A stretch of DNA of 64,000 bases from Xanthomonas sp. SI. Lineage in GTDB: Bacteria > Pseudomonadota > Gammaproteobacteria > Xanthomonadales > Xanthomonadaceae. The position numbers were made by a program, and so were the translations under genes. The stretch lies in contig NZ_CP051261.1 of assembly GCF_014236855.1 (NCBI RefSeq), positions 4,960,001 to 5,024,000 of the forward strand, read 5' to 3'. Numbering within the stretch: the first letter of the stretch is position 1; the number at the start of each line of letters is the position of its first letter. Positions 18,982-55,746 of the stretch are shown here, one piece after another. The notes under the pieces were generated by a model, which saw only the letters and a program-made list of their open reading frames with translations, made no database searches and was not told the DNA's origin.

Positions 18982-19030
18982 CGGGCAATTCTACGCTGGG
19001 CGTGGGCCGAGACCGGAGACCAGACCAAGA

Positions 19031-21948: not shown

Positions 21949-23001
21949 CTAGGCGTCCTCGTCGCGGACGCCGGCCACGTGCTGCAGTTCGCTGACCCCG
22001 GCCGGGGCCAGTTCCTTGAGCAGGTCCAGGAAGTTGCGTCCGACCAGGCGCTGCGCGCGGCGCAGCAGCAGCGGCACCGGGCTGGAGGGTTCGTGGCTGG
22101 CGTAGTAGGCGCAGATCTCGTCGAGCCGGCGCATCACGTCGTCGGGGCTGGCGATGCGGGCATTGCCGCCGCCGGCTCCGGCAGGCGCGGCGCTGCCGCC
22201 CTCGCCACCGGCCTGCTCCTCGCCCGCCGCGTCGCCTTCGGCTGCGCCGCCGTTGCGCGCGGTCCATTGCGGCAGCAGGAAGCGCTCCAGCTCGCGCAGG
22301 TCGCCAAGCAGCGACTTGAGGTCCGGCGCGGCGCTGCCGATCCGATCGGCGAACAGCGCGTCCAGCTCGCGCGCCAGCTGCTGCGCGCGCTGCACCGCGG
22401 CCACGGTCTCCCCCAACGCTTCCAGCGGGCAGTCCAGGCAGCAGGCCTCGATCTCGGTCAGCGACGGCACGCTGTCGCCAGCATTGGCCGGTTTGACGCT
22501 GCCGTTGGCCACGCGCAGGTCGCGCAGGCTGAAGCGGCCCAGCCGCGGCGATTGCACGAAGGCGGTGCTGCGCAGCGCGCCGAGCAGGCCCAGCGGATCG
22601 CCCAGCGCGACCACGGCGTTGACCCGCGCGGTCGGGTCGTCGTCGTCCTCGGCGTCCAGCTGCGGATGCACGCTGTCCCAACGCTGCGCCAGCAGCGCAT
22701 GCACCAGGGCCAGGCCGTCGGCCCAGCCGGGCAGGCCGCGCAGGCGCAGCCAGGCCGCGCTCAGGTGGATCGCCACGCGCAGGTCGTGGCTGCGGCGGAA
22801 CAGCGCCAGCGCCAGGGTCTGCACCTTGTCCCAGTCGGGCTCCTCGGCGGCGATCACGCTGTCGCCGACCGCGCGCTCGGCCTTGTTCGCCGCGGCGCGG
22901 TCCAGCGCCAGGAAGTCGGGGTCGTATTCCAGGTCCGGGCCGGACACCGCGTCGTCGGCGATCGGCGCCAGCAGCGTCTCGAGGGTCTGTTCGGTGCTCA
23001 T
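21949..23001 (-). CDS. tssA: T6SS baseplate/sheath-cap protein TssA
   Basis: A 350-residue protein with an N-terminal ImpA domain (LEYDPDFLAL near residue 25 and EEPDWDKVQTLALALFRRSHDLRVAIHLSAAW-like text at 53-84, shortened here to EEPDWDKV...FRRSHDL), an Ala/Gly/Glu-rich linker around 250-285, and a C-terminal helical block ending in the typical LVGRNFLDLLKELAPAGV. TssA primes and caps the growing sheath. The ATG at 23001 has GGAG upstream; a TTG two codons earlier is rejected. It is separated from the TpsA adhesin gene by 80 bp and is the last core T6SS gene in this direction. Confidence 0.93.
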   Translation of the reverse strand: MSTEQTLETLLAPIADDAVSGPDLEYDPDFLALDRAAANKAERAVGDSVIAAEEPDWDKVQTLALALFRRSHDLRVAIHLSAAWLRLRGLPGWADGLALVHALLAQRWDSVHPQLDAEDDDDPTARVNAVVALGDPLGLLGALRSTAFVQSPRLGRFSLRDLRVANGSVKPANAGDSVPSLTEIEACCLDCPLEALGETVAAVQRAQQLARELDALFADRIGSAAPDLKSLLGDLRELERFLLPQWTARNGGAAEGDAAGEEQAGGEGGSAAPAGAGGGNARIASPDDVMRRLDEICAYYASHEPSSPVPLLLRRAQRLVGRNFLDLLKELAPAGVSELQHVAGVRDEDA

Positions 23002-23081: not shown

Positions 23082-26000
23082 TCACTCCTGCGTGCACTGC
23101 GCATCCGGATCGTCGGCGTCGCAGGCCGGCTGCTGGTCGGCCGGCAGGCGCAGGCCCGGTTTGACCAGGCCGAACGCGCGGTAGCTGGCGTTGGCCGCGC
23201 TCAGGTCCACATAGGCGATGGTGCGGCTGTTCGAACTCTGCGCGCGGCTGGCGAACGCCGAGGTCGGGACGTTGAAGCCCGCCTCGCCGTCCACGACCAG
23301 CAGGCTGCCGTCGGCGGCGACCGCGTAGAAGTACGCTGGCGGCAAGCCGACCGCCGCGACGGTCTGGTTGCTCACGCCCAGCACGTAGATCGGATTGGCG
23401 ACGGTGCCGATGCGGCCGCTGGCCGAGAAGGTGCCGGCGCCGTCGTACAGCCAGGCGGTGTCGGTCTGCAGCAGATCGCCGAGCACGGCCAGGTACAGCG
23501 CCGAGGTGCCGGCATTGACGGTGTAGGCGCTGCCGTTGAGCGCGGACAGGGTCAGGCTCTGGCCATTGCTCAGGCTGAAGCCCCCGGGCGAGGCGAAATC
23601 GCCCAGGGTGCCGATGCGGTTGTCGATCGCCGCACCGGCGGCGCCCAGCCGGGTGCTGCCGCCGACGCTGCCGCTCAGCGTGTCGGCGCTGATGCGGCCG
23701 CTGCTGGTTTCGCTCAGGTCGCCGCCGACCTGCAACCAGACGCTCTGGCCGCCGAGTGCGCCGTCGATCGCCAGATCGCCGCCTGCGTCCAGACGCAGCG
23801 CACCGGCAACCGCGACCGGACCGGTCACGCTCAGGTCGCCCAACGTGCGCAGGCTCAGCTGCGTCGCATCGAAGGCACCGAGCGCGGCGATGGCGTTGGC
23901 GCCGGTCAGGCTGGTGGCGCCGCTGGAACTGCCGCTCAGCGAGGCGGCGCGCAGCGTACCGGCGCTCTGCGCGATCGTGCCGCCGCTGCGCAACTGCAGC
24001 GCGCCACCGCTGCTCACGTCGTGGCCCAGCCCCAGGTCGCCGCCGGCGCTCAAGCCGATGCTGCTGCCGCTCAACGCGCCGGCCGTGCGCAGCGCGCCGC
24101 CCGCGCTCAGCGCCAGCGTGCCGCTGGCCTGCGCCGCTACCGTCAAATCGTTGCGATCGGCGATGGCGATATCGCCGCCGCTGGCTTGCACCGTTCCCTG
24201 GAAATCGTTGCCGGCATCGGTCAGCGCGATCGCGCCGCTGCCGGCATCCAGCGTGGTGGCGCCGGCGACGGTCAGCGCGCCGTGCTGGCCGATGCCGCCG
24301 CCGCTCGCCGCGGGCGTGGCGCTGGCGGTGACGATGGTGGAGGTGGTGGAGGTGGAGGTGGTGGAGGTGGTGGAGGTGGTGCCGCCGCCAGCGTCGCTGC
24401 GCGCGACCAGATCGCCGCCGATGCGGCCCTGGCCCAGCGACAAGGCGCCGCCGCTGGTCACGTTCAGCGCGGCGACCGCCACGCTGCCCAGCGACAGTGC
24501 ATTGCGGTCGCGCAGAGTGGTGGCGCCGCCGGCGAGGTTCACGTCGCCCTGGAAATCGTTGCCGGCGGTGTCCAGCGCGATCGCGCCGGCACCGCTGTCG
24601 ATCGTGCTGCTGCCGCCCACCTGCAGCGCGCCGCTCTGGCTCACTGTACCGCCGCCGCTGGTGGCGACCAGATCGCCGGCGATGCTGCCTTCGCCCAGGT
24701 TGAGCGCGCCGTGGCTGGCAACGTCCAGCGACCCCAGCGACAGCGTGCCCAGCGACAGCGCGTTGGCGTCGCGGACGCGCGCGGCGCCGCCGCTGAGTGC
24801 GAGCAGGCCCTGGAAATCGTTGCCGGCGTCGTCGAGCGCGATCGCGCCGCTGCCAGTGGCGATTGCCGTATCGCCAGTCACGCGCAAGGCGCCGTTCTGG
24901 CTCAGCGCGCCGGTGCTGGTGAGCTGCAGCGCGGCGGCGTTCGAGGCGCCCAGGGTCAGCGCGCCGAGCGCGCCGATGCGGACCGCGCCGCCGTCGAACG
25001 CCAGTGGGCCGGCGAAGCGATTGGCCTGGTCCAGCGTGATCGCGCCGCTGCCGGCCGTCAGGCGGGTAGCGCCGCCGATGTCGAGCGCGCCGCTCTGGCC
25101 GATCGTGGCGTTGCCGCTGTCGGCCTGCAGGGCGCCGCGTACGCTGCCGCTGCCCAGGTTCAGCGCTCCGCCGCTGCTCACCGCCAGGCTGTCGACCGAC
25201 AGCATGCCCAGGCGCAGCGCACCACTGTCGTGCAGCTGCACCGCGCCGCCGGCGATGTCCACGGTGCCGGCGAAATGGTTGCCGCTGCCGGTCAGGGCGA
25301 TGCCGCCGCTGCCGGTGTTCATGCTGGTGCTGCCGTCGACCGTCAGCGCGCCGGCCGTCTGCACGATGGCCGCGTTGTCCGTGCTCAGCAGCAGAGTGCC
25401 GGTCACGGCGACGTCGTCGGCCAGGCTCAGGCCGCTGCCGCCGCTGAGGGTCAGGTTGTGGCCGCTCAGCGCGCCGCCCAAGCTCAGGGTGCCGTGGCGG
25501 GCGACCAGGCTCAGGTCGCCGCTGCCGGTGTCGATCGCGCCGCCCGGCAGGTCGAGCGAACCGTCGGCGAGCAGCGACAGTGCGGCGTTGTTGCCGTTGT
25601 GGACGGCGGCGATGCTCAGATCGTTGCGGTCGGCGAGCTGGATGCCGCTGCCGCTGAGATCGACCGCGCCGACGAAGTCGTTGCCGGCGTTGGTCAGTGC
25701 GATCGCGCCGCTGCCGGCGTCGATGCTGCTGGTGCCGGCGACGGTGACAGCGCTGCTGGCGGACTGGGAGATGCCAGCGTTGGTGGTCTTGAGCCGCAGC
25801 GTGTCGCGGGCAGTCACGTTGTCGGCAAGGACGATGCCGCCGGCGCTGTCCAGGTCCAGCCGGTTCCCGGACAAGGCCGCCGCGGTGGTCAGCACGCCGC
25901 CGCTGCGCAGGGTGATGTCGGCGCTGCCGGTATCGATCGCGGTGGCCGGCAACGACAGGGTGCCGCCTGCGGTCAGCGACAGCGCACTGTTGCTGCCCAG

Positions 26001-29000
26001 GCTCAGCGCCCCGATGCTCAGGTCGTTGGCGTCGGTCAGGGCGACGCCGCTGCCGGCGACGCTGACCGCCTGGCCGAAGTCGTTGCCGGCCTGGTTCAGG
26101 GCGATCGCGCCGGTCCCGGCATCGAGCGTGCTGGTGCCGGCGACGACGAGCGCACCGCCGATCTGCGAGATCGCCGCGTTGCTGGTCTGCAAGCGCAGCG
26201 TGGCGCCGGCGGTGACGTCGTGGGCAAGGACGATGCCGGCCGCGCCGGCCAGGTCCAGCCGGTTCCCGGACAGGGCGGCCGCCGTGGTCAGCACGCCGCC
26301 GCTGTGCAGGGTCATGTCGGCGCTGCCGGTGTCGATCGCGATGGCCGGCAGCGACAGCGCGCCGCCCGCGATGAGCGACAGCGCGCTGTTGCTGCCCAGG
26401 GTCAGTGCGCCGATGGTCAGAGCGTTGGCGTCGGCCAGGGCGATGCCGCGTCCGGTGGCGCTGACCGCCTGGCCGAAGTCGTTGCCGGCGTTGGCCAGCG
26501 CGATCGATCCGCTGCCGGCGTCGAGTGCGCTGGTGCCGGCGACGCTGAGCGAGTTGATCGTGGACTGGCCGATCGCGCCGCCGTTGCTGGTCGCGACCAA
26601 TGCGCCGTTGACCGTGCCGCTGCCCAGGTTCAACGCACCGCTGCTGGTGGCGGTGAGGTTGCCGGTGGCCAGCGTGCCCAAGGTCAGCGCGCCGCTGTCG
26701 GTGATGGCCGTGGTGCCGCCGGTCAGGCTCACCGCTTGCCCGAAGTCGTTGCCGGCGCCGGTCAAGACGATGCCGCCGGTGCCGGCGTCGATGCTGCTGG
26801 TGCCGGAGACGGCGAGTGCGCCGGCGCTCTGGACGATCGCGCTGTTGCTGGTCGTCAGCGCCAGCGTGCCGGCGGTGACGTCGTGCGCCAGGGTGATGCC
26901 GTCGTCGCCGCTGAGGCTCACGTTGGTGCCGGACAGCGCCGCCGCGGTGGCCAGCACGTTGCCGCTGTGCAGGGTCAGGTCGGCACTACCGGTATCGATC
27001 GCGTTCGCCGGCAAGCTCAGCGTGCCGGCTGCGATCAAGGACAGGGCGCTGTTGCTGCCCAGGGTCAACGCGGCGACGTTCAGGTCGTTGCTGTCGACCA
27101 GGCGAATGCCGCTGCCGGTCAGCGACACGGCGCCGCCGAAATCGTTGCCGGCCTGCTCCAGCGTGATCGCGCCGGTGCCGGCATTGAGGCTGCTGGTGCC
27201 GCTGACGGTGAGCGGGCTGGTCGTGGACTGGGTGATCGCGCCGCCGTTGCTGGTCGCCGACAGTGCGCCGGTCACGGTGCCACTGCCCAAGTTCAAGGCG
27301 CCGCTGCTGGTCGCGGTGAGCGCGCCGGTGGCCAGCGTGCCCAGGGTCAGTGCGCCGCTATCGGTGATCGAGGTGGTGCCGCCGGTCAGACTGACCGCCT
27401 GGCCGAAGTCGTTGCCGCTGGTGGTCAAGGTGATCGCCCCGGTGCCGGCATTGAGGGTACTGGTGCCGGTGACGGTCAGCGGATTGCTCGCGGATTGGGT
27501 GATCGCGCCGCCGTTGCTGGTTGCGGACAGCGTGCCGTTCACCGTGCCGCTGCCCAGATTCAAGGCGCCGCTGCTGATCGCGGTGAGGTTGGCGGTGGCC
27601 AGGGTGCCAAAGGTCAGCGCGTTGGCATCGGAGATCGCGGTGCTGCCGCCGGTCAGGCTGACCGCCTGGCCGAAATCGTTGCCGGCACTGGTCAAGGCGA
27701 TGGCGCCGGTGCCGGCGTCGATGCTGCTGCTGCTGTTGACGGTGAGCACGCCGGCGCTTTGGCCGATCGCGCTATTGACGGCGCTCAGCGTCAGCGCGCC
27801 GGCGGCGGTGACGTTGTGCGCCAGCGTGATGCCGTTGTCGCCGCGCAGGTTGACGTTGGTACCGGACAAGGCCGCGCCGGTGGTCAGCGCATTGCCGCTC
27901 TGCAGGGTCAGGTCGGCACTGCCGGTATCGATCGCGTTCGCCGGCAGGGTCAGCGTGCCGGCGGCGATCAAGGACAGCGCGCTGTTGCTGCCCAGGGTCA
28001 ACGCGGCGACGTTCAGGTCGTTGCCGTCGACCAGGCGAATGCCGCTGCCGGTCAGCGATACGGCGCCGCCGAAATCGTTGCCGGCCTGTTCCAGCGTGAT
28101 CGAGCCGGCGCCGGCATCGAGGGTGCTGGTGCCGCTGACCGTGAGCGGATTGGTCGTGGACTGGCTGATCGCGCCACCGTTGCTGGTCGCGGACAGGGCG
28201 CCGCTCACCGTGCCGCGGCCCAGGTTCAGTGCACCGCTGCTGATGGCGGTGAGAGAGCCGGTGGTCAGCGCGTCAAACGCCAGCGCGTTGGCGTTGGTGA
28301 TCGCGGCGTTGCCGCTGATCAGAGTGAGCGCTTGGCGGAAGTCGTTGCCGGCGGTGGTCAGGGTGATCGCACCGGTGCCGGCATTGAAGTAGCTGGTGGC
28401 GGTGACCGTGAGTGGGTTGCTCGCGGACTGGGTGATCGCGCCGCCGTTGCTGTACACGGTCAGCCCGCCGGTCACCGTGCCGTGGCCCAGGTTCACGTCC
28501 CCGGTGGCGACGGCGAAGAGGTCGCCGGTGGCCAGCGTGTCCAGGGTCAGCGCGCCAATGTCGACGATCGCAACGCTGCGGCCAGTCAAGCTCACCGCTT
28601 GCCCGAAGTCGTTGCCGTTGGTGGTCAGGCTGACATTTCCCGTGCTGCCGGCATTGAAGTTGCTGATGCCGCTGACCGTGATCGGGTACAACCCGGACTG
28701 GCGGATGTTACTGCCGTTGCTGGTCGCATCCAGGGTGCCGGTCACGGTGCCGGTGCCCAGGTTCAATACGCCGTTGCTGATCAGGGTGAGGTTGCCGGTG
28801 GCCAGCGTGCTCAGGGTCAGCGCGTTGGCGTCGGTGAGCGCGGTGCTGCCGCCGGTCAGGCTGACCGCCTGACCGAAGTCGTTGCCGGTGGTGGTCAGTG
28901 TGATCGCGCCGGTGCCCGCATTGAGGGCGCTGGTGCCGGTGACCGTGAGCGGGTTGCTCGCCGACTGGGTGATCGCGCCGTTGTTGCTGGTCGCGGCCAA

Positions 29001-31277
29001 CGTGCCAGTCACCGTGCCGCGGCCCAGGTTCAAGGCACCGGTACTGATCGCGGTGAGTTTGCCGGTGGCCAGCGTGCCCAAGGTCAGCGCGTTGGCGTCG
29101 GTGATCGCGGTGCTGCCGCCGGTCAGGCTGACCGCCTGGCCGAAGTCGTTGCCGCTGGTGGTCAGGGTGATCGCGCCGGTGCCGGCGTTGAGGGTACTGG
29201 TGCCGGTGACGGTCAGCGGATTGCTCGCGGATTGGGTGATCGCGCCGCCGTTGCTGGTGGCGGACAGCGTACCGGTCACCGTGCCGCGGCCGAGATTCAG
29301 TGCGCCGGTGCTGATGGCGGTGAGGTTGCCGGTCGCCAATGTGCCGAGGGTCAGTGCGCCGCTGTCGGTGATCTGGGTGGTGCCGCCGGTCAGGCTCACG
29401 GCCTGCCCGAAGTGGTTGCCGGTGCCGGCCAGGGTGATCGCACCGCTGCCGGCGTTGACGCTACTGGTGGCGGAGGCGGCGATTGCGCCGGCGCTCTGGG
29501 CGATCGCGCTGTTGACGGTGGTCAGCGCCAGCGTGCCGGTCGCGGTGACGTCGTGTGCCAGGGTGATGCCGGCGTCGCCGCTCAGGCTCACGTTGGTGCC
29601 GGACAGCGCTGCCGCGGTGGCCAGCACGTTGCCGCTGTGCAGGCTCAGGTTGGCGCTGCCGGTGGCGATCGCACTGCTCGGCAGGGTCAGCGTGCCGCCG
29701 GCGTTCAACGACAGCGCGCTGTTGTTGCCCAGGCTCAGCGTACCGATGGTCAGGGCGTTGGCGTCGGTCAGGGCGATGCCGCTGCCGGTCAGCGACACGG
29801 CGCCGCCGAAATCGTTGCCCGATTGCTGCAGCGTGATCGCGCCGCTGCCGGCATTGAGGTTGCTGGTGCCGGTCACCGTCAGCGGGCTGCTCGCGGATTG
29901 GCCGATCGCGCCGCCGTTGCTAGTGGCGGCCAGGGTGCCGGTCACGCTGCCGCTGCCGAGGTTCAAGGCGCCGGTGCTGGTCGCGGCGAGGTTGCCGGTG
30001 GCCAGCGTGCCCAGGGTCAGCGCGCCGCTGTCGACGATGGTGGTGTTACCGGCGCTCAGGCCGACCGCCTGCCCGAAGTCGTTGCCGGCGTTGTCCAGGG
30101 TGAGCGCATGGCTGCCCAGCGAGAAGCTGCTGCTGCCACCCACCGTCAGTGCACCGGACTGCGCCAGGTCGATGGCGTTGGTCAGGCTCAGGTTGCCGTC
30201 CACGCTCAGGCTGGCGAGGGCGGCGATGTGGTTGCTGCCGCTGAAACTGGCGTCGCCGCCGATGCTGCCGCCCAGGGTGCCGGCCGTGTAGGTGCCGCTC
30301 TGCTGCACGCTGTGGTCGGTGCTGATGTTGATCGCGCCGCTGCCCACATCGATGCTGCCGCTACCGCCGACGCTGGTCTGGCTGCTGCCGTTGGCGACCA
30401 GCGACACGCTGCCGTCGCTGCCGCCGCTGAGGGCGGCGGCGGTGATGGTGCCGCTGTTGTTGATCAACTGGTCAAACAGGCCCTGCGCGGCGCGCGCCTG
30501 CAGCGTGATGATGCCGCCGGGCGCGCTGAGGGTGCCGCTGTTGCTGTTGTCCACTGCCACGCTGTCCAGCTGCAGCTGCAAGGCCTTGTCGACGACGACG
30601 CCGAAGCCGCCGCTTTCGAAGGTGAGGGTGACCTTGTCGGCACCGACCAGGTTGATGTTGCCGGCGCTGGCGGTGATGGTGCCGCTGTTGACCACCTTGC
30701 CGCCGATCAGGTCGACCGCGCCGGCGGCGGCGTTGATGGTGCCGCTGTTGGACATCAGCGCGACCGTGTTGCCGCCGGCGTCGAGCGTGTCGTTGCCGCT
30801 CATGAAGGCGGAGGCGGTGGTGCCCAGGGTGCTGGCCACCAGCCCGCCGACGTTGATGTGCGTGGTGCTGCCGAAGATGATCCCGTTGGGGTTGATCAGG
30901 AACACCTGGCCGTTGGCATTGAGATTGCCGAAGATCTGCGTGGGATTGCCGCTCTGCACCAGGTTGAGCACCGCTGAATTGGTGGACGGCTGGTTGAACG
31001 TCACCGTGGCCGCCGAACCGATATCGAACGCGGACCAGTTCAACGCCATCCGGCTGGAGGTCTGGTCGATGGTCAGGGTCGCGCCGCTGGCCGCATTGAT
31101 GGTGCCGGTGCCGCCGGCGATGCTGCCGCCGGTCGGCAGTTGGGTACTCGCCACCTGCGCCGCCGCGTCGCCGGGCGCCGCGGCGCCAATGGCGAGCGCC
31201 AGGGCCAGCGCGAGCGGCGAGTGGCGCAGCGCCCGTGCGGCACGGGGGGCGATCGAAGTCTGGGCGATGGCGGACAT
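23082..31277 (-). CDS. Giant filamentous-haemagglutinin-type TpsA adhesin
   Basis: A 2731-residue exoprotein of a two-partner secretion system. A signal peptide (to about residue 41, ending AAAQ) precedes a TPS domain with NPNGI at 129-133 and SRMALNWSAFDIG at 75-87. From about residue 390 to 1870 it is made of repeated modules containing GNDFGQAVSLTG-like and NGGAITQSASNPLTV-like blocks. Less regular beta-helix sequence with a Thr/Ser tract follows. The C-terminus ends in a Cys pair 11 residues apart (CDADDPDAQC, last 13 residues), as in HMW1, where such a loop anchors the protein to its transporter. GAGGA lies before the ATG at 31277. The tpsB gene ends 11 bp upstream. Likely surface adhesin; no C-terminal toxin domain is visible. 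Confidence 0.92.
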   Translation of the reverse strand: MSAIAQTSIAPRAARALRHSPLALALALAIGAAAPGDAAAQVASTQLPTGGSIAGGTGTINAASGATLTIDQTSSRMALNWSAFDIGSAATVTFNQPSTNSAVLNLVQSGNPTQIFGNLNANGQVFLINPNGIIFGSTTHINVGGLVASTLGTTASAFMSGNDTLDAGGNTVALMSNSGTINAAAGAVDLIGGKVVNSGTITASAGNINLVGADKVTLTFESGGFGVVVDKALQLQLDSVAVDNSNSGTLSAPGGIITLQARAAQGLFDQLINNSGTITAAALSGGSDGSVSLVANGSSQTSVGGSGSIDVGSGAINISTDHSVQQSGTYTAGTLGGSIGGDASFSGSNHIAALASLSVDGNLSLTNAIDLAQSGALTVGGSSSFSLGSHALTLDNAGNDFGQAVGLSAGNTTIVDSGALTLGTLATGNLAATSTGALNLGSGSVTGTLAATSNGGAIGQSASSPLTVTGTSNLNAGSGAITLQQSGNDFGGAVSLTGSGIALTDANALTIGTLSLGNNSALSLNAGGTLTLPSSAIATGSANLSLHSGNVLATAAALSGTNVSLSGDAGITLAHDVTATGTLALTTVNSAIAQSAGAIAASATSSVNAGSGAITLAGTGNHFGQAVSLTGGTTQITDSGALTLGTLATGNLTAISTGALNLGRGTVTGTLSATSNGGAITQSASNPLTVTGTSTLNAGTGAITLTTSGNDFGQAVSLTGGSTAITDANALTLGTLATGKLTAISTGALNLGRGTVTGTLAATSNNGAITQSASNPLTVTGTSALNAGTGAITLTTTGNDFGQAVSLTGGSTALTDANALTLSTLATGNLTLISNGVLNLGTGTVTGTLDATSNGSNIRQSGLYPITVSGISNFNAGSTGNVSLTTNGNDFGQAVSLTGRSVAIVDIGALTLDTLATGDLFAVATGDVNLGHGTVTGGLTVYSNGGAITQSASNPLTVTATSYFNAGTGAITLTTAGNDFRQALTLISGNAAITNANALAFDALTTGSLTAISSGALNLGRGTVSGALSATSNGGAISQSTTNPLTVSGTSTLDAGAGSITLEQAGNDFGGAVSLTGSGIRLVDGNDLNVAALTLGSNSALSLIAAGTLTLPANAIDTGSADLTLQSGNALTTGAALSGTNVNLRGDNGITLAHNVTAAGALTLSAVNSAIGQSAGVLTVNSSSSIDAGTGAIALTSAGNDFGQAVSLTGGSTAISDANALTFGTLATANLTAISSGALNLGSGTVNGTLSATSNGGAITQSASNPLTVTGTSTLNAGTGAITLTTSGNDFGQAVSLTGGTTSITDSGALTLGTLATGALTATSSGALNLGSGTVTGALSATSNGGAITQSTTSPLTVSGTSSLNAGTGAITLEQAGNDFGGAVSLTGSGIRLVDSNDLNVAALTLGSNSALSLIAAGTLSLPANAIDTGSADLTLHSGNVLATAAALSGTNVSLSGDDGITLAHDVTAGTLALTTSNSAIVQSAGALAVSGTSSIDAGTGGIVLTGAGNDFGQAVSLTGGTTAITDSGALTLGTLATGNLTATSSGALNLGSGTVNGALVATSNGGAIGQSTINSLSVAGTSALDAGSGSIALANAGNDFGQAVSATGRGIALADANALTIGALTLGSNSALSLIAGGALSLPAIAIDTGSADMTLHSGGVLTTAAALSGNRLDLAGAAGIVLAHDVTAGATLRLQTSNAAISQIGGALVVAGTSTLDAGTGAIALNQAGNDFGQAVSVAGSGVALTDANDLSIGALSLGSNSALSLTAGGTLSLPATAIDTGSADITLRSGGVLTTAAALSGNRLDLDSAGGIVLADNVTARDTLRLKTTNAGISQSASSAVTVAGTSSIDAGSGAIALTNAGNDFVGAVDLSGSGIQLADRNDLSIAAVHNGNNAALSLLADGSLDLPGGAIDTGSGDLSLVARHGTLSLGGALSGHNLTLSGGSGLSLADDVAVTGTLLLSTDNAAIVQTAGALTVDGSTSMNTGSGGIALTGSGNHFAGTVDIAGGAVQLHDSGALRLGMLSVDSLAVSSGGALNLGSGSVRGALQADSGNATIGQSGALDIGGATRLTAGSGAITLDQANRFAGPLAFDGGAVRIGALGALTLGASNAAALQLTSTGALSQNGALRVTGDTAIATGSGAIALDDAGNDFQGLLALSGGAARVRDANALSLGTLSLGSLDVASHGALNLGEGSIAGDLVATSGGGTVSQSGALQVGGSSTIDSGAGAIALDTAGNDFQGDVNLAGGATTLRDRNALSLGSVAVAALNVTSGGALSLGQGRIGGDLVARSDAGGGTTSTTSTTSTSTTSTIVTASATPAASGGGIGQHGALTVAGATTLDAGSGAIALTDAGNDFQGTVQASGGDIAIADRNDLTVAAQASGTLALSAGGALRTAGALSGSSIGLSAGGDLGLGHDVSSGGALQLRSGGTIAQSAGTLRAASLSGSSSGATSLTGANAIAALGAFDATQLSLRTLGDLSVTGPVAVAGALRLDAGGDLAIDGALGGQSVWLQVGGDLSETSSGRISADTLSGSVGGSTRLGAAGAAIDNRIGTLGDFASPGGFSLSNGQSLTLSALNGSAYTVNAGTSALYLAVLGDLLQTDTAWLYDGAGTFSASGRIGTVANPIYVLGVSNQTVAAVGLPPAYFYAVAADGSLLVVDGEAGFNVPTSAFASRAQSSNSRTIAYVDLSAANASYRAFGLVKPGLRLPADQQPACDADDPDAQCTQE
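24335..24381. repeat. GGTGGA/GGT triplet microsatellite inside tpsA
   Basis: On the plus strand about 47 bases consist of GGTGGA and GGT units only. On the coding (minus) strand they encode a Thr/Ser tract of about 15 residues. Units are multiples of three, so gain or loss would change length and not frame. It lies in the less regular C-terminal third of the adhesin. Confidence 0.8.
25690..30110. repeat. Tandem coding repeats of about 264 and 400 bp in tpsA
   Basis: The marker GTCGTTGCC (encoding the GND of GNDFG) recurs near 26077, 26479, 26741, 27141, 27405, 27672, 28072, 28341, 28605, 28877, 29138, 29405, 29806 and 30077. Spacing is either about 262-272 bp (88-90 residues) or about 400 bp (133 residues). 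The longer unit has an extra 135-bp module encoding a LTLPANAIDTGSADLTL-like block. Some copies are nearly identical in DNA, which suggests recent duplication or gene conversion. Positions were read by eye and may be off by a few bases. Confidence 0.8.
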
Positions 31278-31288
31278 GAGCGGATTCC

Positions 31289-32992
31289 TCAAAAGGTGAA
31301 ACCGAAACGCGAATAGAAACGGACGTCGCGTCCGTCGGACGCATCGCGCCCGCCGGTCGGCTTTGCGGCGCTGAGCCGCAGTTCGAAGCTCTTCCATTGC
31401 GGCACGCGCAGGGTGACGCCGGCACCGGCGCCATCGAACGTGGTCACCGCCGCGGTGGTCGCGCGGTTGCCGCCGGCCGGATAGACCTGCGCGTGGTCGG
31501 CGAACACGTCCAGCTCCAGCACCTCGCGCCACGGCCGGCCGTTGAACGGCGAGGCGGCGTCGGCGAAGCCGGGCGCATCGACGTGGTACTCCAGCGCGGC
31601 GTAGTAGCCGCGGTCGCCGAGCGCGTCGGACACCGGGTAGGCGCGCACGCTGTCCGGTCCGCCGACCGCGAACTGCTCCATCGGGGTCAGCGCGTCGTCG
31701 CTGTACTGGCCGTTGAGCTTGAGGTACAGGCGCTGGGTGCGGCTGAGGTACTGCATGCGCGTATAGCTCAGCCGCGCGATGCTGAAGTGGCTGTCGTGCT
31801 CCGGGCTGACCAGGTCCGGCGTGGCAGAGCGGTCCTTCAGCGACTGGCGCAGGCTCAGCTGCAGCAGATCGATGCCGCGCCAGCGCAGGTCGGTGCGGCG
31901 CAGCGCGGTGCTCAGTTCGACCACGTCGAACTTCTGGTCGGACAGCTGGATGCCGGCGGCGCTGAGCCGCGACTGCTCGCGCAGGTAGCGCGCCGAGGCC
32001 TGCCATTGCAGGTTCTCGCGATTGACGAACTTCCAGTCGCTGCCGAGGTAGACCACCGAGGTCGGGCCCTGCAGGCCGAGCGTGGCGAACACGCCGTTGC
32101 GCACTTCCAGTTCGCTGCGGCTGGCGCCGATCACCGCGCCGAATCCGGGCACTGCCGGCACCGGCAGCGCGTAGGACAACGCGCCGATCCGGCTCTGCCG
32201 CGGGTCCAGCGAATAGGCGTAGCTGGCGGACAGCACATCGCCCAGGCCGAGCGGGCTGTTCCAGGCCAGGCCGAGCTGGGCGCGGTAGCGGCCGGTCAGG
32301 TCGGTGCCGTAGTTGTTGCCGCCCAGGCTGATCGCATACGGGCGCGGCGCCTCGCTGGCGACCAGCAGCACGTCGGTCTCGCCTTCGTGCTGGCCCGGCT
32401 GCAGCACCGAGGACACCGACACGCCCGGCAGGTCGCGCACGTACAGCAGCGCGCTGTCCACGTCCTGCTTGCGCAGCGCGCGCCCCTGCAATGCCTGCAG
32501 CGGCGCGGCCAGGGTGCTGGCGCGGTAACGCGACGCGCCCTTGACCTCGACCTGGCCGACGCGGCCTTCGAGCACGCGGATCTCGACGATCTGTTCCGGC
32601 CCCGGGGTCTGCGCCGGCAGGTAGGCGGTGCTGACGATGAAGCCGGACAGGCGGTAGGCGCGGGTGATGGCGTCGGCCACCGCCTGCAGTTGCTCGAAAC
32701 GCAGCGCCACCACCGGCTGGCCCTGCGCCAAGGCCTGGAATTGCGCATCGGCCAGCGCCTGCACGCTGGCCGGGGTGATGCCGGCCTTGGCGTGTTCGCC
32801 GACATCGCGCACGCGGAAGCCGCGGACCTGCAAGGTCACCGCGCTGTCCTCGCGATCCTTCAGCGGCGGCAGCGTGGCGCTGGCGCCGCTGGCGGCGGTG
32901 CCGGTTTCGGCGGCGGCAGGCGGCAGCTGCGCCCACGCCGGAACGGCAGCGAGCCACGCGGACACAGCCGCGGCCAGACACGTCATACGCAT
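31289..32992 (-). CDS. TpsB outer-membrane transporter (ShlB/FhaC/HecB family)
   Basis: A 567-residue Omp85-superfamily transporter. A signal peptide (ends AWA, about residue 22) is followed by two POTRA domains (about 50-215, with the YRLSGFIVSTAYLPAQ block typical of POTRA1) and a 16-strand barrel. VRAYPVSDALGDRGYY contains the VRGY/F-like loop motif, here VRAY, and the last residue is Phe (SRFGFTF), as needed for BAM insertion. It exports the TpsA protein encoded 11 bp downstream. The start ATG at 32992 has AGGGGA upstream and overlaps the end of the preceding small gene by 10 bp, linking the pair to the ppkA transcript. Confidence 0.92.
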   Translation of the reverse strand: MRMTCLAAAVSAWLAAVPAWAQLPPAAAETGTAASGASATLPPLKDREDSAVTLQVRGFRVRDVGEHAKAGITPASVQALADAQFQALAQGQPVVALRFEQLQAVADAITRAYRLSGFIVSTAYLPAQTPGPEQIVEIRVLEGRVGQVEVKGASRYRASTLAAPLQALQGRALRKQDVDSALLYVRDLPGVSVSSVLQPGQHEGETDVLLVASEAPRPYAISLGGNNYGTDLTGRYRAQLGLAWNSPLGLGDVLSASYAYSLDPRQSRIGALSYALPVPAVPGFGAVIGASRSELEVRNGVFATLGLQGPTSVVYLGSDWKFVNRENLQWQASARYLREQSRLSAAGIQLSDQKFDVVELSTALRRTDLRWRGIDLLQLSLRQSLKDRSATPDLVSPEHDSHFSIARLSYTRMQYLSRTQRLYLKLNGQYSDDALTPMEQFAVGGPDSVRAYPVSDALGDRGYYAALEYHVDAPGFADAASPFNGRPWREVLELDVFADHAQVYPAGGNRATTAAVTTFDGAGAGVTLRVPQWKSFELRLSAAKPTGGRDASDGRDVRFYSRFGFTF

Positions 32993-33453
32993 GCGATTTC
33001 CCCTGGAACGATTCCCTGTCGTGCGCCGGCCTCGCCCCACTGCGCCCCGGGTACCGCGGCGGCAGCGGCGGACCGATGCGCGCGCGGGCCGGGAGCGGCC
33101 GCCGCTTGCGCCTGCCCTGCGAATGCGGGCAAGGCGCCAGCGAAGAATAGCAGTAAAAGTGCGATCAACGTCACGAAAATAAACAGCATGAGCCAGCGCA
33201 GGCGGCGGCGCGCCGGCGCGTCGGCGAACAGCGCACGCAGCGGTTCGTGCGCGGCGCGCGTGGCGGCCGGCACGGCGGCAGCGACGGTCGGCCGCAGCGC
33301 ATTGCGATGGGTCACGCCCTGGCCGATATCGCGCACGGAGGCCAGCACGTTGCGCCGCCGCGCGCGGTATTCGTCGCGGCCGATGCGGCCGTGCTGATAG
33401 GCCTCGGCCAGCGCCTGCAGATGCGCGTTGGCCAGGTGCTGGGCCTCGTTCAT
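32983..33453 (-). CDS. Small SHOCT-like single-pass membrane protein
   Basis: A 156-residue protein. The first 35 residues contain LAEAYQHGRIGRDEYRARRR, a short helical segment like the SHOCT domain. A membrane segment (LMLFIFVTLIALLLLFFAGA) is at about 89-108 and is followed by an Ala/Pro-rich periplasmic tail. It overlaps the ppkA stop by 4 bp (ATGA) and the tpsB start by 10 bp, so it joins the T6SS regulatory genes to the two-partner pair. Function unknown. A role in signalling with PpkA or in TpsB assembly is possible but unsupported. Confidence 0.75.
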   Translation of the reverse strand: MNEAQHLANAHLQALAEAYQHGRIGRDEYRARRRNVLASVRDIGQGVTHRNALRPTVAAAVPAATRAAHEPLRALFADAPARRRLRWLMLFIFVTLIALLLLFFAGALPAFAGQAQAAAAPGPRAHRSAAAAAVPGAQWGEAGARQGIVPGEIACV

Positions 33454-36400
33454 GGCAACTCCCGCAGCACGCGCAGGCCCACGTCCGGCTGCGCCGAGCC
33501 GTTGTCGGCACGCCGCGCCTGCACCGTGCAATCGGCCCAATAGCTGGCGAAACTGCCGCCGCGCGCCTGCACCCCGGCGCCGCTGGACACCCACTCCCAG
33601 ACGTTGCCGGTGACATTGATCAGCCCCCATGGATTGGGCTCGCGGCCGCGCGGCGGCAACGGTGCGCGGCTGGCGTCGCCGGCGCTGGCGGTGGGCGGCA
33701 CGCAATTGCTGTCCTCGGCTTGCCGCCAGTCGCTGCCGGCCTGCGCGGCGTGCTGCCATTCGGCATCGGTGGGCAGGCGATAGCGCCAGCCGCCGCTGGC
33801 GATGGTCAGCCAGCGCAGGTAGGCGCGGGCCTGGGTCAGGCTGATGTTGCGCACCGGCGCGCGCGCCAGTTCCGCATCCCCGGCCGGTTGCGCGGTGCAC
33901 TTGCCGGTGGCCTGGCAGAACAGGTTGAAATCGGCCACCGCCACTTCCGCGCGCGACAGCGCGTAGGGCTTGCCGCCGGCCAGGCCGGGCACCACCACCA
34001 GCATCGGCCCGCGCTGCGCGCCGAGCGCATCGAAGCAGGCCTTGCCGCGTCCGGGCGCGGCAGCGGCGCAAGGATCGGGGCCGGTCGGCACCGGCGGCAA
34101 CGGTTCCTCGTCGCTCGCCGCGCCGGCGGCAGGCGCACGTGCGCTGGCCGCAGGCGCGGTCGCCGGCTTGGCGGCGGGCTTGCCGCTCGCGGGTTTGCGC
34201 GTGGCGTCCTTGGCGGCCGGCTCGACCGCTGCAGCCGGCGTCGGCGCCAATGCATCTGAACTGGGCGCATCGCTGCCGGCCTGGCGCTGCAGGCGTGCGC
34301 CGAGCGTGCCTTCGGGCAGCTGCCCGCGCGCCTTCAGGTCGGCTTCCAGCTGCGCCATCGCCTGCGCATCGCTGCGGTACAGCGCCTCCAGGCGCTGGCC
34401 GAGTTGCTGTCGCGCGGCGGCGGGCAAGGCCTGCGCGCTGCCGTCCATCACCGCGGCGACGACGTCGTAGCGGGCCTGCGCGGCGCGCAGTTCGGCGCGG
34501 TCGCCGAGCGCGGCGACACCCTGGCCGAGCACGTCGGCGGCCTGCCGATAGCGGCCCTGGCGGAACGCGCCGGCGGCGTTGCCGAGATAGACCCCGGCCA
34601 GCAGCTGCGGCGCTTCCTTCTGCAGGAACGGATGTTGCGGTTGCAGCGCGCCGATGCGCGCCAGCGCCTGGCGCGCCTTGTCCAGATCGTTGGCGGCCGC
34701 GGCGCGGCGCATCGATTCGATCCGCGAGGTCACTTCGGCCTCGGCGCTCTCGCGCGCCAGCATGGTCTGCAACTGTTGCTGCAGGGTCTGCAGGCGCTCG
34801 CGCTGGGCCAGCAGCTGCGGCGCCTGCGGCGCCTGGGTCAGGCCGAAATCGACCAGGGCCTGCGCGCCCGGCAACTGCAACGGATCGCTCTGCGGCGCGA
34901 CCGCCGCGGCGATCGCCGCCGCCAGCGCCGCGTCCTGCGCATCGCGCTCGGCCGCCGGCAGGACCGCCAGCGCCGCCTCGACGTTGTCCTGCCAGTCCAG
35001 GTCGGCGGAAGGCTCGGCCAGCAGCGCCGCCAGCGCCTTGCGCGCCTGCGCCGGATCGTGCAGCGCCGCTACCGCCGGCTGGCTGGCATGGTGCTGCGCC
35101 AGTTCCAGCTGCGCGCCGCGCAACTGCAGCCGCAGCGAATCGGGCAGCGTCGCGCGCGCCTGCTGCAGGCGGGTGCGCGCCTGCGCCCACTGCTGCGTGT
35201 CGGCAGCCTGCTGGATCGCCGCGTCCAGGCGCAGCTCCAGTTCCGGGTGGCGCAGCAGCGCGCTGTTCGGATCGATGCGCCGCACCTGGTCCAGCGTGGC
35301 CAGTGCGTTGTCGGCGCGGTCGCGGAAGATGGCGCCGGCGGCGATCTGCGCGTTGAGCGCGGTATCCAGCGCGTTGAGGCGTTCGTTCTTCTCGCGCTCC
35401 ATGCTCTCGCGGCGGGCGTCCAGCGCCGGCGAATACAGCCGCAGCCGGTCGCGCAGCGCGAACGCCTGCAGTGCGCCGCGGTAGTCGTAGCGCCCGCTGG
35501 CCGGATTCCACAGCGCATCCAGGCGGCGCAACAGGAAATCCTGGATCAGGTCGCCGCGGTCCACCAGCAGGCGCCGGCGGTCGTCGTCGTCCAGACTGGC
35601 CAGCGCCTGCATCGCCTGGGTCTCGTCGACGTAACGCTGCGGATCGGCCGCGCCGAAGCGCGCGGTGACCTGCTCCAGATGACGCTGATGCAGATAGCGC
35701 GACGCGCCCCAGCCGCCGGCCCCGACCAGCACCAGCGCCGCGGTGCCGTAGCCCAGCAGCGGCAGCGCGCGCTCGCGCAGCGGCACCTCGCGCAGGCCTT
35801 CCAGCAGCGCCTCGACCTTGCTCAGGCGGTGCGCGGCGGGAAACGCCACCGCTGCGCACAGGGTCTGGTACTGGCGCTTGGTCAGGCCCGGCACCGGTGG
35901 CGGCACGCGCTTGTCGCGCAACGCCACTTCGGCGCTGAGCTTGTCGAACGGATGCTTGCCGGTGAGCAGCTCGAAGCACACGCAACCGAGTGCGTAGATG
36001 TCGTCGGCCGGCGTAGGCTCCTGGCCGCGGATCATTTCCAGGCTGGCGTAGGCCGGGGTCAGCGCGCCGAGCGTGGCCGCATCGAACACGGTCTGCTCGC
36101 CGGCCACGTCGGCGGCGTGCTTGCCGGCGCGGGCGATGCCGAAATCGAACACCTTGGCCACGCCGTCGCGGGTGACCATCACGTTGCCCGGCTTGAAATC
36201 CGAATGCACCACGCCGGCGGCATGCGCCCGCGCCAGGGCCCGCGCCATGCCCTCGATCAGCGGCCGCGCGCGCGCCAGCGGCATGCCGTTGTAGGCCTGC
36301 TCGCGGATCAGCGTCTTCAGGTCGCAGCCGTCGATGTACTCCATGGTCATGAAGACCAGGGTGCGGTCCTTGTCGAAGTCGTAGACGCGCACGATGTTGT

Positions 36401-37091
36401 CGTGGGCCAGCTTCTGCGAGCGCCGCGCCTCGCGCTGCAGCGCGATCAACGAATCGGGATGGCGGCGGAACTCGTCGCTGAGCACCTTCACCGCCAGCCA
36501 TGGGTCGCGGTCGCGCGCCTCGACCTTGCGTTCGTCGCGCGCCAGGTAGACCACGCCCATGCCGCCGCGGCCGAGTTCGCGCTCCAGGTAGAAGCGGCTC
36601 TTCAGCAGCGTGCCGACCGTGGCGTAATCGCCGCCGGCGGCATCGGCCAGGCGTTGCCAGCTGGCCAGGCTGGCGGTGCCCGCGGTGCCGGTCGCGCCGC
36701 CGGTGCCGGTCGCCCCGGTGCGGTCGGCGCCGGCCTGCGGCAGCGGCATTGCCGGCTGCACGCGGGTGGCTTCGTCGTCGACCGCCGCCGGCGGCGGCGG
36801 CGGCGCACGGCGCGGCATCACCACGGTGGCGTCGTCGTCGATCGGTGCGGCCACGGGCGCGGTGCCGCCGTCCGCGCGCAAGGCGTCGAGGCGGGTCACC
36901 AGCGTGGTCACGGTGACGTCGTCGAGCAGATGCTGCTGGCGCAGCTGCCACAGCGTTTCCACCCCGGCCCGGTAGTCGGCCTCGGGCACGGCGCTGCGTT
37001 TGGCCAATGCGTCGAGCACGGCCTTCAGGTCTAGCTCGCCGGTGCGCATCGCGGCGACCAGCTCGACGACGGTAGCGGTATCTTCATGCAC
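33450..37091 (-). CDS. ppkA: PpkA-type Ser/Thr kinase fused to a formylglycine-enzyme-like (TagR-like) domain
   Basis: A 1213-residue protein from GTG at 37091, eight bases after AGGAG. A linker region with two DDDATVV/DDEATRV blocks (phospho-Thr-like sites) precedes a kinase domain (about 165-430): glycine loop GRGGMGVVY, K202, E221, catalytic loop HSDFKPGN (296-303) and DFG (316-318). The HRD Arg is replaced by Ser. One membrane segment is near 450-465, then a long helical periplasmic region, then an FGE/SUMF1 domain (about 1000-1213) with YRLPTDAEWQHAA, NVTGNVWEW and ARGGSFASYW. In H1-type systems PpkA phosphorylates Fha to switch on secretion, PppA reverses it, and the separate FGE-like TagR assists PpkA; here the two are one chain. 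Confidence 0.9.
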   Translation of the reverse strand: MHEDTATVVELVAAMRTGELDLKAVLDALAKRSAVPEADYRAGVETLWQLRQQHLLDDVTVTTLVTRLDALRADGGTAPVAAPIDDDATVVMPRRAPPPPPAAVDDEATRVQPAMPLPQAGADRTGATGTGGATGTAGTASLASWQRLADAAGGDYATVGTLLKSRFYLERELGRGGMGVVYLARDERKVEARDRDPWLAVKVLSDEFRRHPDSLIALQREARRSQKLAHDNIVRVYDFDKDRTLVFMTMEYIDGCDLKTLIREQAYNGMPLARARPLIEGMARALARAHAAGVVHSDFKPGNVMVTRDGVAKVFDFGIARAGKHAADVAGEQTVFDAATLGALTPAYASLEMIRGQEPTPADDIYALGCVCFELLTGKHPFDKLSAEVALRDKRVPPPVPGLTKRQYQTLCAAVAFPAAHRLSKVEALLEGLREVPLRERALPLLGYGTAALVLVGAGGWGASRYLHQRHLEQVTARFGAADPQRYVDETQAMQALASLDDDDRRRLLVDRGDLIQDFLLRRLDALWNPASGRYDYRGALQAFALRDRLRLYSPALDARRESMEREKNERLNALDTALNAQIAAGAIFRDRADNALATLDQVRRIDPNSALLRHPELELRLDAAIQQAADTQQWAQARTRLQQARATLPDSLRLQLRGAQLELAQHHASQPAVAALHDPAQARKALAALLAEPSADLDWQDNVEAALAVLPAAERDAQDAALAAAIAAAVAPQSDPLQLPGAQALVDFGLTQAPQAPQLLAQRERLQTLQQQLQTMLARESAEAEVTSRIESMRRAAAANDLDKARQALARIGALQPQHPFLQKEAPQLLAGVYLGNAAGAFRQGRYRQAADVLGQGVAALGDRAELRAAQARYDVVAAVMDGSAQALPAAARQQLGQRLEALYRSDAQAMAQLEADLKARGQLPEGTLGARLQRQAGSDAPSSDALAPTPAAAVEPAAKDATRKPASGKPAAKPATAPAASARAPAAGAASDEEPLPPVPTGPDPCAAAAPGRGKACFDALGAQRGPMLVVVPGLAGGKPYALSRAEVAVADFNLFCQATGKCTAQPAGDAELARAPVRNISLTQARAYLRWLTIASGGWRYRLPTDAEWQHAAQAGSDWRQAEDSNCVPPTASAGDASRAPLPPRGREPNPWGLINVTGNVWEWVSSGAGVQARGGSFASYWADCTVQARRADNGSAQPDVGLRVLRELP

Positions 37092-37096: not shown

Positions 37097-37825
37097 TCAC
37101 TCCTGCAGGCGGACGACGACGGCGGTGACGTTGTCGCGCGCCGCCCGGCCCATCGCCAATTCGAACAACCGCGTCAGCAGCGCCTGCGGCTCGCCATGCA
37201 GGCGGCACTCGGCATCCAGCTCCGGGTCGGGGATTTCCTTGTTGATGCCGTCGCTGCACAGCAGGAACTGCGCGCCGGACGCGCTCGGCGCCAGCACCCA
37301 GTCCACGAACAGCGGTTCCTGCGCACCCACCGCGCGGGTCAGCACGCCGGCGTTGGCGGCCGGCTCAGCGCTGGCGCCGGCGTGCGCGAACTGGGTGGCG
37401 TCGTCCTTGACCCCATGCACGTGGTCGCGGGTGAGCTGGCGCAGCGCCCCCCCGAGGCGGCCGTAGCCGCGGCTGTCGCCGACCCAGCCGTACAGCATGA
37501 AATCCGGGTCGTGCACCAGCAGCACCACGGTGGAAGCGATCATGTCGACCTGGCGCTGCGCTGCGCAGTGCAGCAGTTCGGTGTTGATCTGCGCCAGCGC
37601 GTCCTCGATCGCCTCGATGAAATCGCACACGTCGGCCGCGCGCGGCAGCGTCGCCAGGCGCTCGACGATCAAGCCGCTGGCGTAGTCGCCGGCGGCATGC
37701 CCGCCGAGCCCGTCGGCGACCACCCACAGCCCGGCGTCGTCGCGCAGCAGCAGCGCATCCTCGTTGTGGCGGCGCACCTTGCCGACTTCGGTATGCCCGG
37801 CCGAGCGATAGTGGTGTGCGGTCAT
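37097..37825 (-). CDS. pppA: PP2C-type Ser/Thr phosphatase of the T6SS phosphorylation switch
   Basis: A 242-residue PP2C phosphatase with RRHNEDALLL, the metal-binding VVADGLGGHAAGDYAS, GDSRGYG, CSDGI and RDNVTAVVV motifs, all in order. It opposes PpkA by dephosphorylating the FHA protein. The ATG at 37825 overlaps the tagF stop (TGATG). The ppkA GTG start is 5 bp after its stop. An upstream extension to 37936 lies inside tagF and was rejected. Confidence 0.93.
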   Translation of the reverse strand: MTAHHYRSAGHTEVGKVRRHNEDALLLRDDAGLWVVADGLGGHAAGDYASGLIVERLATLPRAADVCDFIEAIEDALAQINTELLHCAAQRQVDMIASTVVLLVHDPDFMLYGWVGDSRGYGRLGGALRQLTRDHVHGVKDDATQFAHAGASAEPAANAGVLTRAVGAQEPLFVDWVLAPSASGAQFLLCSDGINKEIPDPELDAECRLHGEPQALLTRLFELAMGRAARDNVTAVVVRLQE

Positions 37826-38400: not shown

Positions 38401-38411
38401 CGGCTGCATCC

Positions 38412-53522: not shown

Positions 53523-53821
53523 GGCGGGGAGGCCTTTTGCACGGTCCAACGCGGTGCGATGCCCGAACCGCGGCATGGGGCGTGATGCGCCAAGTCTTGG
53601 ACAGCGATCGGGAGCGGCCTGGGCACGACGTCGAGCATGGCTGGCGGAAGAGTGAGGGCCACGCAAGTATCACGCATAAAAGTGACGCGACTCGCATTCC
53701 GTCGCCTGCCGGTTGGATGGATCAAGCGGCACGCGCCGGATCCGCCCGCCGCTTCGTGCCGGATTCGCCACAGACCCTGCATGATTTCGCTTGCCGGGCT
53801 CATGCGCCGTACCGGACGCTC
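53523..53821. other. Spacer upstream of the kinase gene with falling G+C
   Basis: 299 bp without a supported gene. Base composition changes here from the high-GC T6SS genes to the lower-GC cargo block, so this is one candidate boundary of an inserted segment. No clear direct repeat or integrase remnant was found. Confidence 0.35.
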
Positions 53822-55699: not shown

Positions 55700-55746
55700 A
55701 AATCCTCCAAAAACATTGATCGACCGAACCACAGGATGGTTTGACG

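What the first reader, a model, noticed from the sequence alone, without database searches (positions are those of the whole stretch)
23082..37091. A complete two-partner adhesin pair is embedded in the T6SS gene string
Seen: ppkA, the 156-residue membrane protein gene and tpsB overlap one another by 4 and 10 bp, tpsA follows 11 bp later, and tssA follows 80 bp after that, all on one strand. Known: TpsA/TpsB systems and T6SS loci are normally unlinked, and tssA in H1-type loci sits with tssB. Inference: the adhesin may be co-expressed with the T6SS under the PpkA/PppA switch, so that cells bind a neighbour when the T6SS is ready to fire.
Basis: partly seen in the sequence, partly recalled or inferred. 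Interest (0 to 1): 0.8.

Follow-up and report, generated by a model that had tools for sequence, protein, structure and literature searches.

The report
Adhesin pair built into T6SS locus
In one branch of a molecular harpoon (the type VI secretion system) of plant- and soil-associated bacteria, the harpoon genes carry in their midst a gene pair for a long surface adhesin with a predicted anchor, which suggests that the machine may come with its own gripping arm.

Summary
On the minus strand the order is pppA–ppkA–membrane protein–tpsB–tpsA–tssA, with junctions −4, −10, +11 and +80 bp. It is not a local insertion. Across 348 genomes of the order, 39 of 40 T6SSs of this clade have the TpsB gene on the same strand within 20 kb; the 40th has it on another contig. 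The sister clade has it in 0 of 9. TpsB tracks PpkA in distance (r 0.97), and its tree is best read as one old acquisition. TpsA ends in a two-cysteine tail in 36 of 40 closed ORFs; the other four look broken or gapped. The tail resembles the HMW1/HxuA one that keeps TpsA on the cell. No toxin family was found, and there is no room for an immunity gene. Best reading: a surface-tethered filamentous adhesin that belongs to this T6SS clade, probably for target contact. Co-expression is likely in Xanthomonas but unproven; control by PpkA/PppA is not supported. Two genomes kept tpsBA without a T6SS, so it can work alone. The co-location was noted once for X. citri (PMC6797930); my searches found no description of the conserved module.

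The parts
37097..37825 (-). pppA, PP2C-type phosphatase
   Evidence: Pfam PP2C_2; coordinates
33450..37091 (-). ppkA, Ser/Thr kinase with C-terminal FGE-sulfatase domain (alternative GTG start at 37100)
   Evidence: Pfam Pkinase 8e-37, FGE-sulfatase 5e-19
32983..33453 (-). 156-aa protein with one hydrophobic span; weak SHOCT-like N-terminus; overlaps ppkA by 4 bp
   Evidence: coordinates; hydrophobic span and YRxRRR motif in 51 of 51 loci, but the script that picked the ORFs preferred ones with RRR/RRK near the start; DUF1707 only sub-threshold, E 0.008
31289..32992 (-). tpsB, ShlB/FhaC-type outer-membrane transporter
   Evidence: Pfam ShlB 6e-30, POTRA_2 1e-8
23082..31277 (-). tpsA, 2731-aa filamentous-haemagglutinin-like exoprotein
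   Evidence: Pfam TPS 1.5e-25 and 20 DUF5649 stretches; NCBIfam adhes_NPXG
30396..31097 (-). TPS secretion domain of TpsA (residues 61-294)
   Evidence: Pfam hit
23085..23174 (-). C-terminal two-cysteine tail of TpsA (last 30 residues; the only two cysteines of the protein)
21949..23001 (-). tssA, 80 bp after tpsA
   Evidence: Pfam ImpA_N 1.8e-33
37825..38418 (-). tagF (start approximate), next gene upstream
   Evidence: Pfam TagF_N 7e-32
38412..41900 (-). tssM (start approximate)
   Evidence: Pfam IcmF families
41954..43252 (-). tssL with OmpA domain, used as marker of the T6SS clade
   Evidence: Pfam DotU, OmpA; order-wide search

Best explanation
tpsBA is a conserved accessory module of one clade of group 3 T6SS (by gene content the X. 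citri-type clade) in the order Lysobacterales. TpsB exports TpsA, a repeat-built filament of about 2000-4000 residues. TpsA's two-cysteine C-terminal tail probably stays in the periplasm as a disulfide loop, so the filament remains tethered in its TpsB pore. In Xanthomonas the pair is very likely made from the same transcript as ppkA, the membrane protein and tssA. Its most likely job is to grip the cell that the T6SS will hit, bacterium or protist. Shown: order, junctions, conservation, co-inheritance, domains, cysteine tail. Inferred: co-transcription, anchoring, adhesion, and service to T6SS killing.
For: Clade A T6SS: 39 of 40 with TpsB on the same strand within 20 kb, the 40th on another contig; sister clade 0 of 9; no TpsB hit at E 1e-90 in the 22 genomes with only more distant TssL. 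ppkA-mem overlap of 4 bp in 50 of 51 loci; mem-tpsB -10 bp in 16 of 19 Xanthomonas loci; tpsB-tpsA 11 bp in 18 of 19; tpsA-tssA 47-80 bp in the 14 Xanthomonas loci with an intact tpsA and a tssA in view, -4 bp in Luteibacter. TpsB-PpkA distances correlate at 0.97 (34 taxa), the core pair PpkA-PppA at 0.94 (26 taxa). T6SS-linked TpsBs and the two from T6SS-less genomes form one group, 100/100, apart from FhaC. Cysteine tail in 36 of 40 closed TpsA ORFs. The passenger varies faster (79-80%) than its ends (88-92%) against the three closest species. Precedent: TasL, a T6SS-cluster lipoprotein that makes the contact needed for killing (PMC9040878, passages).
Against: No expression, adhesion or killing data. 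Two genomes keep intact tpsBA without any TssK, so TpsA has some use without the T6SS. In 17 Rhodanobacteraceae loci tssA faces tpsA tail to tail, and outside Xanthomonas mem-tpsB runs from -4 to about 1900 bp by the script's choice of start codon, so a separate promoter is possible there. A transcriptome of an X. perforans tssM mutant reports T6SS genes up while an fhaB goes down (PMC10782981, passages); which fhaB is not said there. The TasL paper mentions large predicted lipoproteins in the T6SS clusters of X. citri and Dyella (PMC9040878, passage), so another contact factor may exist in such loci; I did not look for it.
Confidence: 0.55

Rival explanations
1. TpsBA is a general surface or host adhesin (biofilm, plant attachment) that shares the T6SS transcript only because both are useful in the same setting; it does nothing for T6SS firing or targeting.
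For: Two lineages, nested among T6SS-linked ones in the TpsB tree, keep intact tpsBA without a T6SS. The FhaB/FhaC pair of X. citri acts in leaf attachment and epiphytic fitness (PMC2632755, passages).
Against: Retention without a T6SS looks rare: of the 308 order genomes without a clade A T6SS, 7 have a TpsB hit at E 1e-90; one of these (G072) groups with the T6SS-linked ones, three group with FhaC, and three (G019, G318, G355) were not placed in the tree. G006 is a second case, from the genus set. The pair was not found with the sister T6SS clade (0 of 9).
Confidence: 0.3
2. TpsBA is an upstream contact sensor: tension on, or occupancy of, the TpsA tail in the periplasm is read by PpkA's probably extracytoplasmic FGE-family domain, perhaps through the small membrane protein, and triggers TagF release and firing.
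For: ppkA, mem and tpsBA are contiguous, and TpsB-PpkA is the closest correlation of the five pairs tested, on unequal taxon sets. PpkA has one modest hydrophobic span near residue 442 and an FGE domain beyond it. Known PpkA systems take an input through TagQRST or RtkS (PMC6653060, passage).
Against: Sister-clade loci without tpsBA have PpkA with the same FGE domain (4 of 4) and the same small gene after ppkA (3 of 3 readable), so neither arose for the adhesin. No interaction data.
Confidence: 0.1
3. A CDI (CdiA-type) contact toxin parked in the T6SS locus.
For: Same TPS export pathway.
Against: The C-terminus is conserved among species, not polymorphic; no toxin family; only 80 bp before tssA, so no room for an immunity gene.
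Confidence: 0.02
4. Neutral hitch-hiking of two unrelated loci.
For: None beyond adjacency.
Against: Retention in 39 of 40 systems across two families, with near-fixed junctions in Xanthomonas.
Confidence: 0.03

Closest known systems
X. citri T6SS locus, XAC4112-XAC4117
   Same: Published gene numbers put PppA (XAC4117) and PpkA (XAC4116) next to a ShlB-type TpsB (XAC4114), and the haemagglutinin/haemolysin region XAC4112-XAC4125 is described as flanked by T6SS genes (passages of PMC13147305, PMC2632755, PMC6797930). A relative, X. cissicola (L054), shows the full order in its DNA. I did not see X. citri DNA itself.
   Different: The passages treat the adhesin and the T6SS apart. One table draws the T6SS as XAC4116-XAC4148, stopping at ppkA (PMC3071791, passage). 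Naming differs: PMC3838355 calls XAC4114 a filamentous haemagglutinin.
TasL of Vibrio fischeri
   Same: A large surface protein encoded in a T6SS cluster that creates cell-cell contact for T6SS killing (PMC9040878, passages).
   Different: TasL is a putative lipoprotein with fibronectin-like repeats and is not in an operon. TpsA is a TPS passenger with DUF5649 repeats and a two-cysteine tail.
HMW1/HxuA and CdrA TPS adhesins
   Same: TPS domain, dedicated TpsB. For HMW1/HxuA, a C-terminal disulfide loop that holds TpsA in TpsB (PMC5422565, passages).
   Different: Linkage to T6SS is not mentioned in the passages read; anchoring is untested here. A cysteine hook in CdrA is from recall; the passage gives only its cleavable periplasmic tail.
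FhaC-FhaB of Xanthomonas (XAC1814/1815)
   Same: Nearest TpsB relatives in the genus, 53-55% identical; that they are FhaC is by position beside a TPS-domain gene and by recall.
   Different: Separate group, 100/100, at another chromosomal site.

Membership tests
Two-partner secretion (type Vb) | TpsA with N-terminal TPS domain | tested here: met
   Pfam TPS 1.5e-25; NCBIfam adhes_NPXG
Two-partner secretion (type Vb) | Adjacent TpsB with POTRA domain and ShlB/FhaC barrel | tested here: met
   Pfam ShlB and POTRA_2; 11 bp upstream of tpsA
Two-partner secretion (type Vb) | TpsA is exported by this TpsB | not testable with these tools
   needs fractionation
HMW1/HxuA-type anchored TpsA | C-terminal cysteine pair | tested here: met
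   36 of 40 closed ORFs; the other four look frame-broken or gapped
HMW1/HxuA-type anchored TpsA | Disulfide loop retained in the periplasm | not testable with these tools
   AlphaFold gives low confidence for residues 342-391 and 395-400 of the model; no more than compatible
CDI (CdiA/CdiB/CdiI) | Polymorphic C-terminal toxin plus immunity gene | tested here: not met
   conserved C-terminus, no toxin family, 80 bp to tssA
Group 3 T6SS with PpkA-PppA-Fha, TagF and TagJ | These genes present in one cluster | tested here: met
   (ImpE = TagJ); the X. citri subgroup is inferred from gene content, not from a TssC tree
TasL | Lipoprotein with Fn3-like repeats | tested here: not met
   no Fn3 family in TpsA at E 0.001; lipobox not tested by a program

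The most novel reading that the evidence does not exclude
A whole T6SS clade has an obligate, co-inherited gripping arm: a tethered two-partner filament that chooses and holds the target and, through its periplasmic tail and the PpkA-membrane-protein pair, tells the machine that contact has been made, so that firing is licensed by adhesion.
Probability: 0.12. Interest if true: 0.88.

Novelty: new variant of a known kind. Interest (0 to 1): 0.62.

Why it matters
T6SS needs contact, and how cells secure it is mostly unknown; TasL in Vibrio is the one tested case that I found. A conserved adhesin gene pair inside one T6SS clade, not found with its sister clade, gives natural presence/absence pairs and two natural T6SS losses with which to test whether contact factors are part of the machine. 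It would also widen the definition of this locus, which at least one published table cuts off at ppkA.

Tried and rejected
CDI toxin: rejected (conserved C-terminus, no room for an immunity gene). Recent single-strain insertion: rejected. My own idea that PpkA's FGE-bearing end and the small membrane protein appear only with tpsBA was dropped: all 4 sister-clade PpkAs examined have the FGE domain, and all 3 loci readable past ppkA have a similar small gene there. The PDB fold search with the model of TpsA's last 400 residues gave no match at E 0.001 or better. Promoter and terminator scans were uninformative in this G+C-rich DNA. The first TpsB tree was discarded because five FhaC rows had been translated from the wrong strand; one search replaces it. 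In the query set the tssK and vgrG queries were out of frame; no conclusion uses them. The Fisher test ignores relatedness and is not relied on.

Sampling limits: the order search drew 348 genomes evenly from a larger group. Of the nine sister-clade genomes I read DNA for four; the other five rest on the whole-genome TpsB search at E 1e-90, and remoter TPS pairs near sister-clade or more distant T6SSs were not sought. The 51 loci are the window plus 50 with distinct tpsB DNA; other loci were left out as the same genome met twice, or because the T6SS is absent (L041, L065/L096) or the match is remote (L072, Pantoea). I did not check whether the four TpsA ORFs without the tail are broken in nature or in the assembly. 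The tree used 34 sequences; the distance test used 26 to 35 per gene. Lists of the paper searches were capped at 12–30 titles.
Full report
What is there. Pfam supports each name except the membrane protein, which has only a sub-threshold SHOCT-like match. Upstream on the same strand lie tagF, tssM, tssL, tssK and fha, and further up a ClpB/ClpV-type ATPase, tssF, tssE and tagJ/impE. The genome has one TssK-type gene and four TPS domains.

Is it a recent insertion? No. In the genus set, 6 of 20 genomes, the window's included, have a tssA at least 86% identical, and in all six the cassette stands in the same order. A seventh genome, G006, has tpsBA near polA as in the others, but no T6SS gene in the stretch fetched, no tssA match and no TssK. 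A scan of named GTDB genomes with the TpsB alignment gave 22 loci. In 20 of them ppkA lies on one side of tpsB and tpsA on the other, in Xanthomonas, Luteibacter, Frateuria, Rhodanobacter and one proteobacterial MAG; the exceptions are Dyella amyloliquefaciens (no match to the T6SS genes in the flanks) and a remote Pantoea match.

How tight is the link? Among 348 genomes of the order, TpsB is found in 47 at E 1e-90 and TssL in 71 at E 1e-60. By best TssL the 71 fall into three identity bands: 64–100% (40 genomes, clade A), 50–56% (9, clade B) and 37–42% (22). TpsB lies on the same strand 8.8–13.6 kb away in 39 of the 40 clade A genomes; in the 40th it is on another contig. It is near none of the clade B loci, and no clade B or third-band genome has a TpsB hit. 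The clade A/B split matches, by gene content, the published X. citri-type and X. oryzae-type subgroups: the clade B locus L092 has tssA on the other strand beside a LysR-like gene (judged by eye), as the review PMC6653060 describes in passages. I did not build a TssC tree.

Junctions as a sign of co-transcription. In 51 distinct loci the ppkA–membrane protein overlap is 4 bp in 50; the exception has a broken ppkA frame. mem–tpsB is −10 bp in 16 of 19 Xanthomonas loci (the others −4, −1 and +19). tpsB–tpsA is 11 bp in 18 of 19 and 10 bp in the other. tpsA–tssA is 47–80 bp in the 14 Xanthomonas loci with an intact tpsA and a tssA in view, 34 bp in one other member of the family (L081) and −4 bp in Luteibacter (L075). 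In 17 other Rhodanobacteraceae loci tssA faces tpsA tail to tail, 1.1–1.6 kb off (two of the 17 tssA matches are partial). Outside Xanthomonas mem–tpsB ranges from −4 to about 1900 bp. So coupling of ppkA and the membrane protein is near universal, while coupling of tpsBA to them and to tssA is strong only in Xanthomonas and near it.

What was there first. In the sister clade, all 4 PpkAs examined carry the FGE-sulfatase domain, and in all 3 loci readable past ppkA a small gene of the same look overlaps its end by 1 or 4 bp, with no tpsB in the stretch. The simplest reading is that ppkA–mem is the older pair and tpsBA entered behind it in the ancestor of clade A.

Inheritance. Protein distances of TpsB and PpkA correlate at 0.97 over 34 taxa, against 0.94 for PpkA–PppA over 26 (permutation p 0.001 for each of five pairs). 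In the tree the T6SS-linked TpsBs, plus the two from T6SS-less genomes, sit on one side of a 100/100 branch from the FhaC group, and split into the two families (95/94 and 100/98). I read this as one acquisition before the families split; transfer between families is not excluded. The two T6SS-less cases nest inside, so they are best read as T6SS losses with tpsBA kept.

What the adhesin looks like. TpsA is 1989–4014 residues long among the 36 ORFs with the tail; in G006 and Dyella it is 2174 and 1906. The window's protein has just two cysteines, the 13th and 4th residues from its end. The pair is invariant in all 16 aligned sequences, which were chosen among closed ORFs, and present in 36 of 40 closed ORFs; 23 of those 36 have no interior cysteine, 13 have one or two. 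A review describes such a C-terminal disulfide loop as what holds HMW1 and HxuA in their TpsB pore (PMC5422565, passages). AlphaFold gives a mostly confident, nearly all-beta body and a low-confidence tail from residue 342 of 400 (mean pLDDT 83.9); no PDB match reached E 0.001. Against the three closest species TpsA's middle is 79–80% identical and its ends 88–92%, while TpsB is 95–99%: the middle varies fastest. That it is surface-exposed is inferred.

How it probably works. Step 1, one transcript in Xanthomonas: likely, not shown. Step 2, TpsB exports TpsA and the tail keeps it tethered: inferred from homology. Step 3, the filament binds a target: inferred. Step 4, binding helps the T6SS: inferred from the clade-specific linkage and from TasL, a different T6SS-cluster protein shown to create contact for killing (PMC9040878, passages). 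Since the X. citri system protects against amoebae and gave no advantage against Gram-negative bacteria (PMC6653060, section 3 part 1 read), the gripped cell may be a protist rather than a bacterial neighbour. In X. citri a clpV deletion lowered biofilm and leaf adhesion (PMC11677086, passages), which fits either a direct or a loose link.

What is known. PMC6797930 notes in a sentence that the X. citri haemagglutinin region XAC4112–XAC4125 is flanked by T6SS genes; PMC2632755 calls XAC4114 a ShlB-type TpsB, while PMC3838355 calls it a filamentous haemagglutinin; PMC13147305 gives PpkA as XAC4116 and PppA as XAC4117; PMC3071791 tabulates the T6SS as XAC4116–XAC4148 (all passages). The Xanthomonadales T6SS review (PMC6653060; part 1 of section 3 read, the rest by term search) has no hit for haemagglutinin, FhaB or haemolysin; its one 'adhesin' is a predicted effector in a table row for X. 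citri. The titles and abstract openings listed by searches, each capped, show no description of the conserved module. I opened 15 papers, all by passages save that one section. Supplements and subscription papers were not searched.

Verdict. Not a new kind of system, but a conserved variant of a T6SS locus with a directly testable contact hypothesis.

Noticed in passing
window 20461-21504 and 20023-20415, minus strand: Two genes between tssA and polA with no Pfam or NCBIfam match; the larger has an HEFAH zinc-protease-like motif (read by eye). Among the loci tested, several of which do not reach that region, they match only in L037: a candidate variable effector with a partner.
   Followed up: partly
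window 54000-57000: Segment of lower G+C (0.56-0.60 against about 0.71) between a kinase gene and a clpV-type gene, with unfamiliar reading frames: possibly exchanged T6SS cargo.
   Followed up: no
L066 2432-9080; also L068, L071: Frateuria loci carry two ppkA matches. In L066 and L068 the one beside pppA is short, 700 and 735 aa; in L066 it lacks the FGE domain that the long copy beside the membrane protein and tpsBA has.
   Followed up: partly
L042 1985-3103, minus strand: In Frateuria terrea a 372-aa gene without a Pfam match overlaps the end of tpsA by 8 bp; tail-to-tail gaps of 1.1-1.6 kb before tssA in 17 relatives leave room for such a gene there too.
   Followed up: partly
L055 1123-19851: In X. 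phaseoli ATCC 49119 tssM, ppkA and tpsA all look frame-broken: the adhesin seems to decay along with the T6SS.
   Followed up: no
window 19030-19435: A 141-bp tandem repeat, 2.8 copies, beside polA.
   Followed up: no
window 51027-53669, minus strand: Second Ser/Thr kinase with TPR repeats in the T6SS region, perhaps the counterpart of PknS of X. citri; not tested.
   Followed up: no
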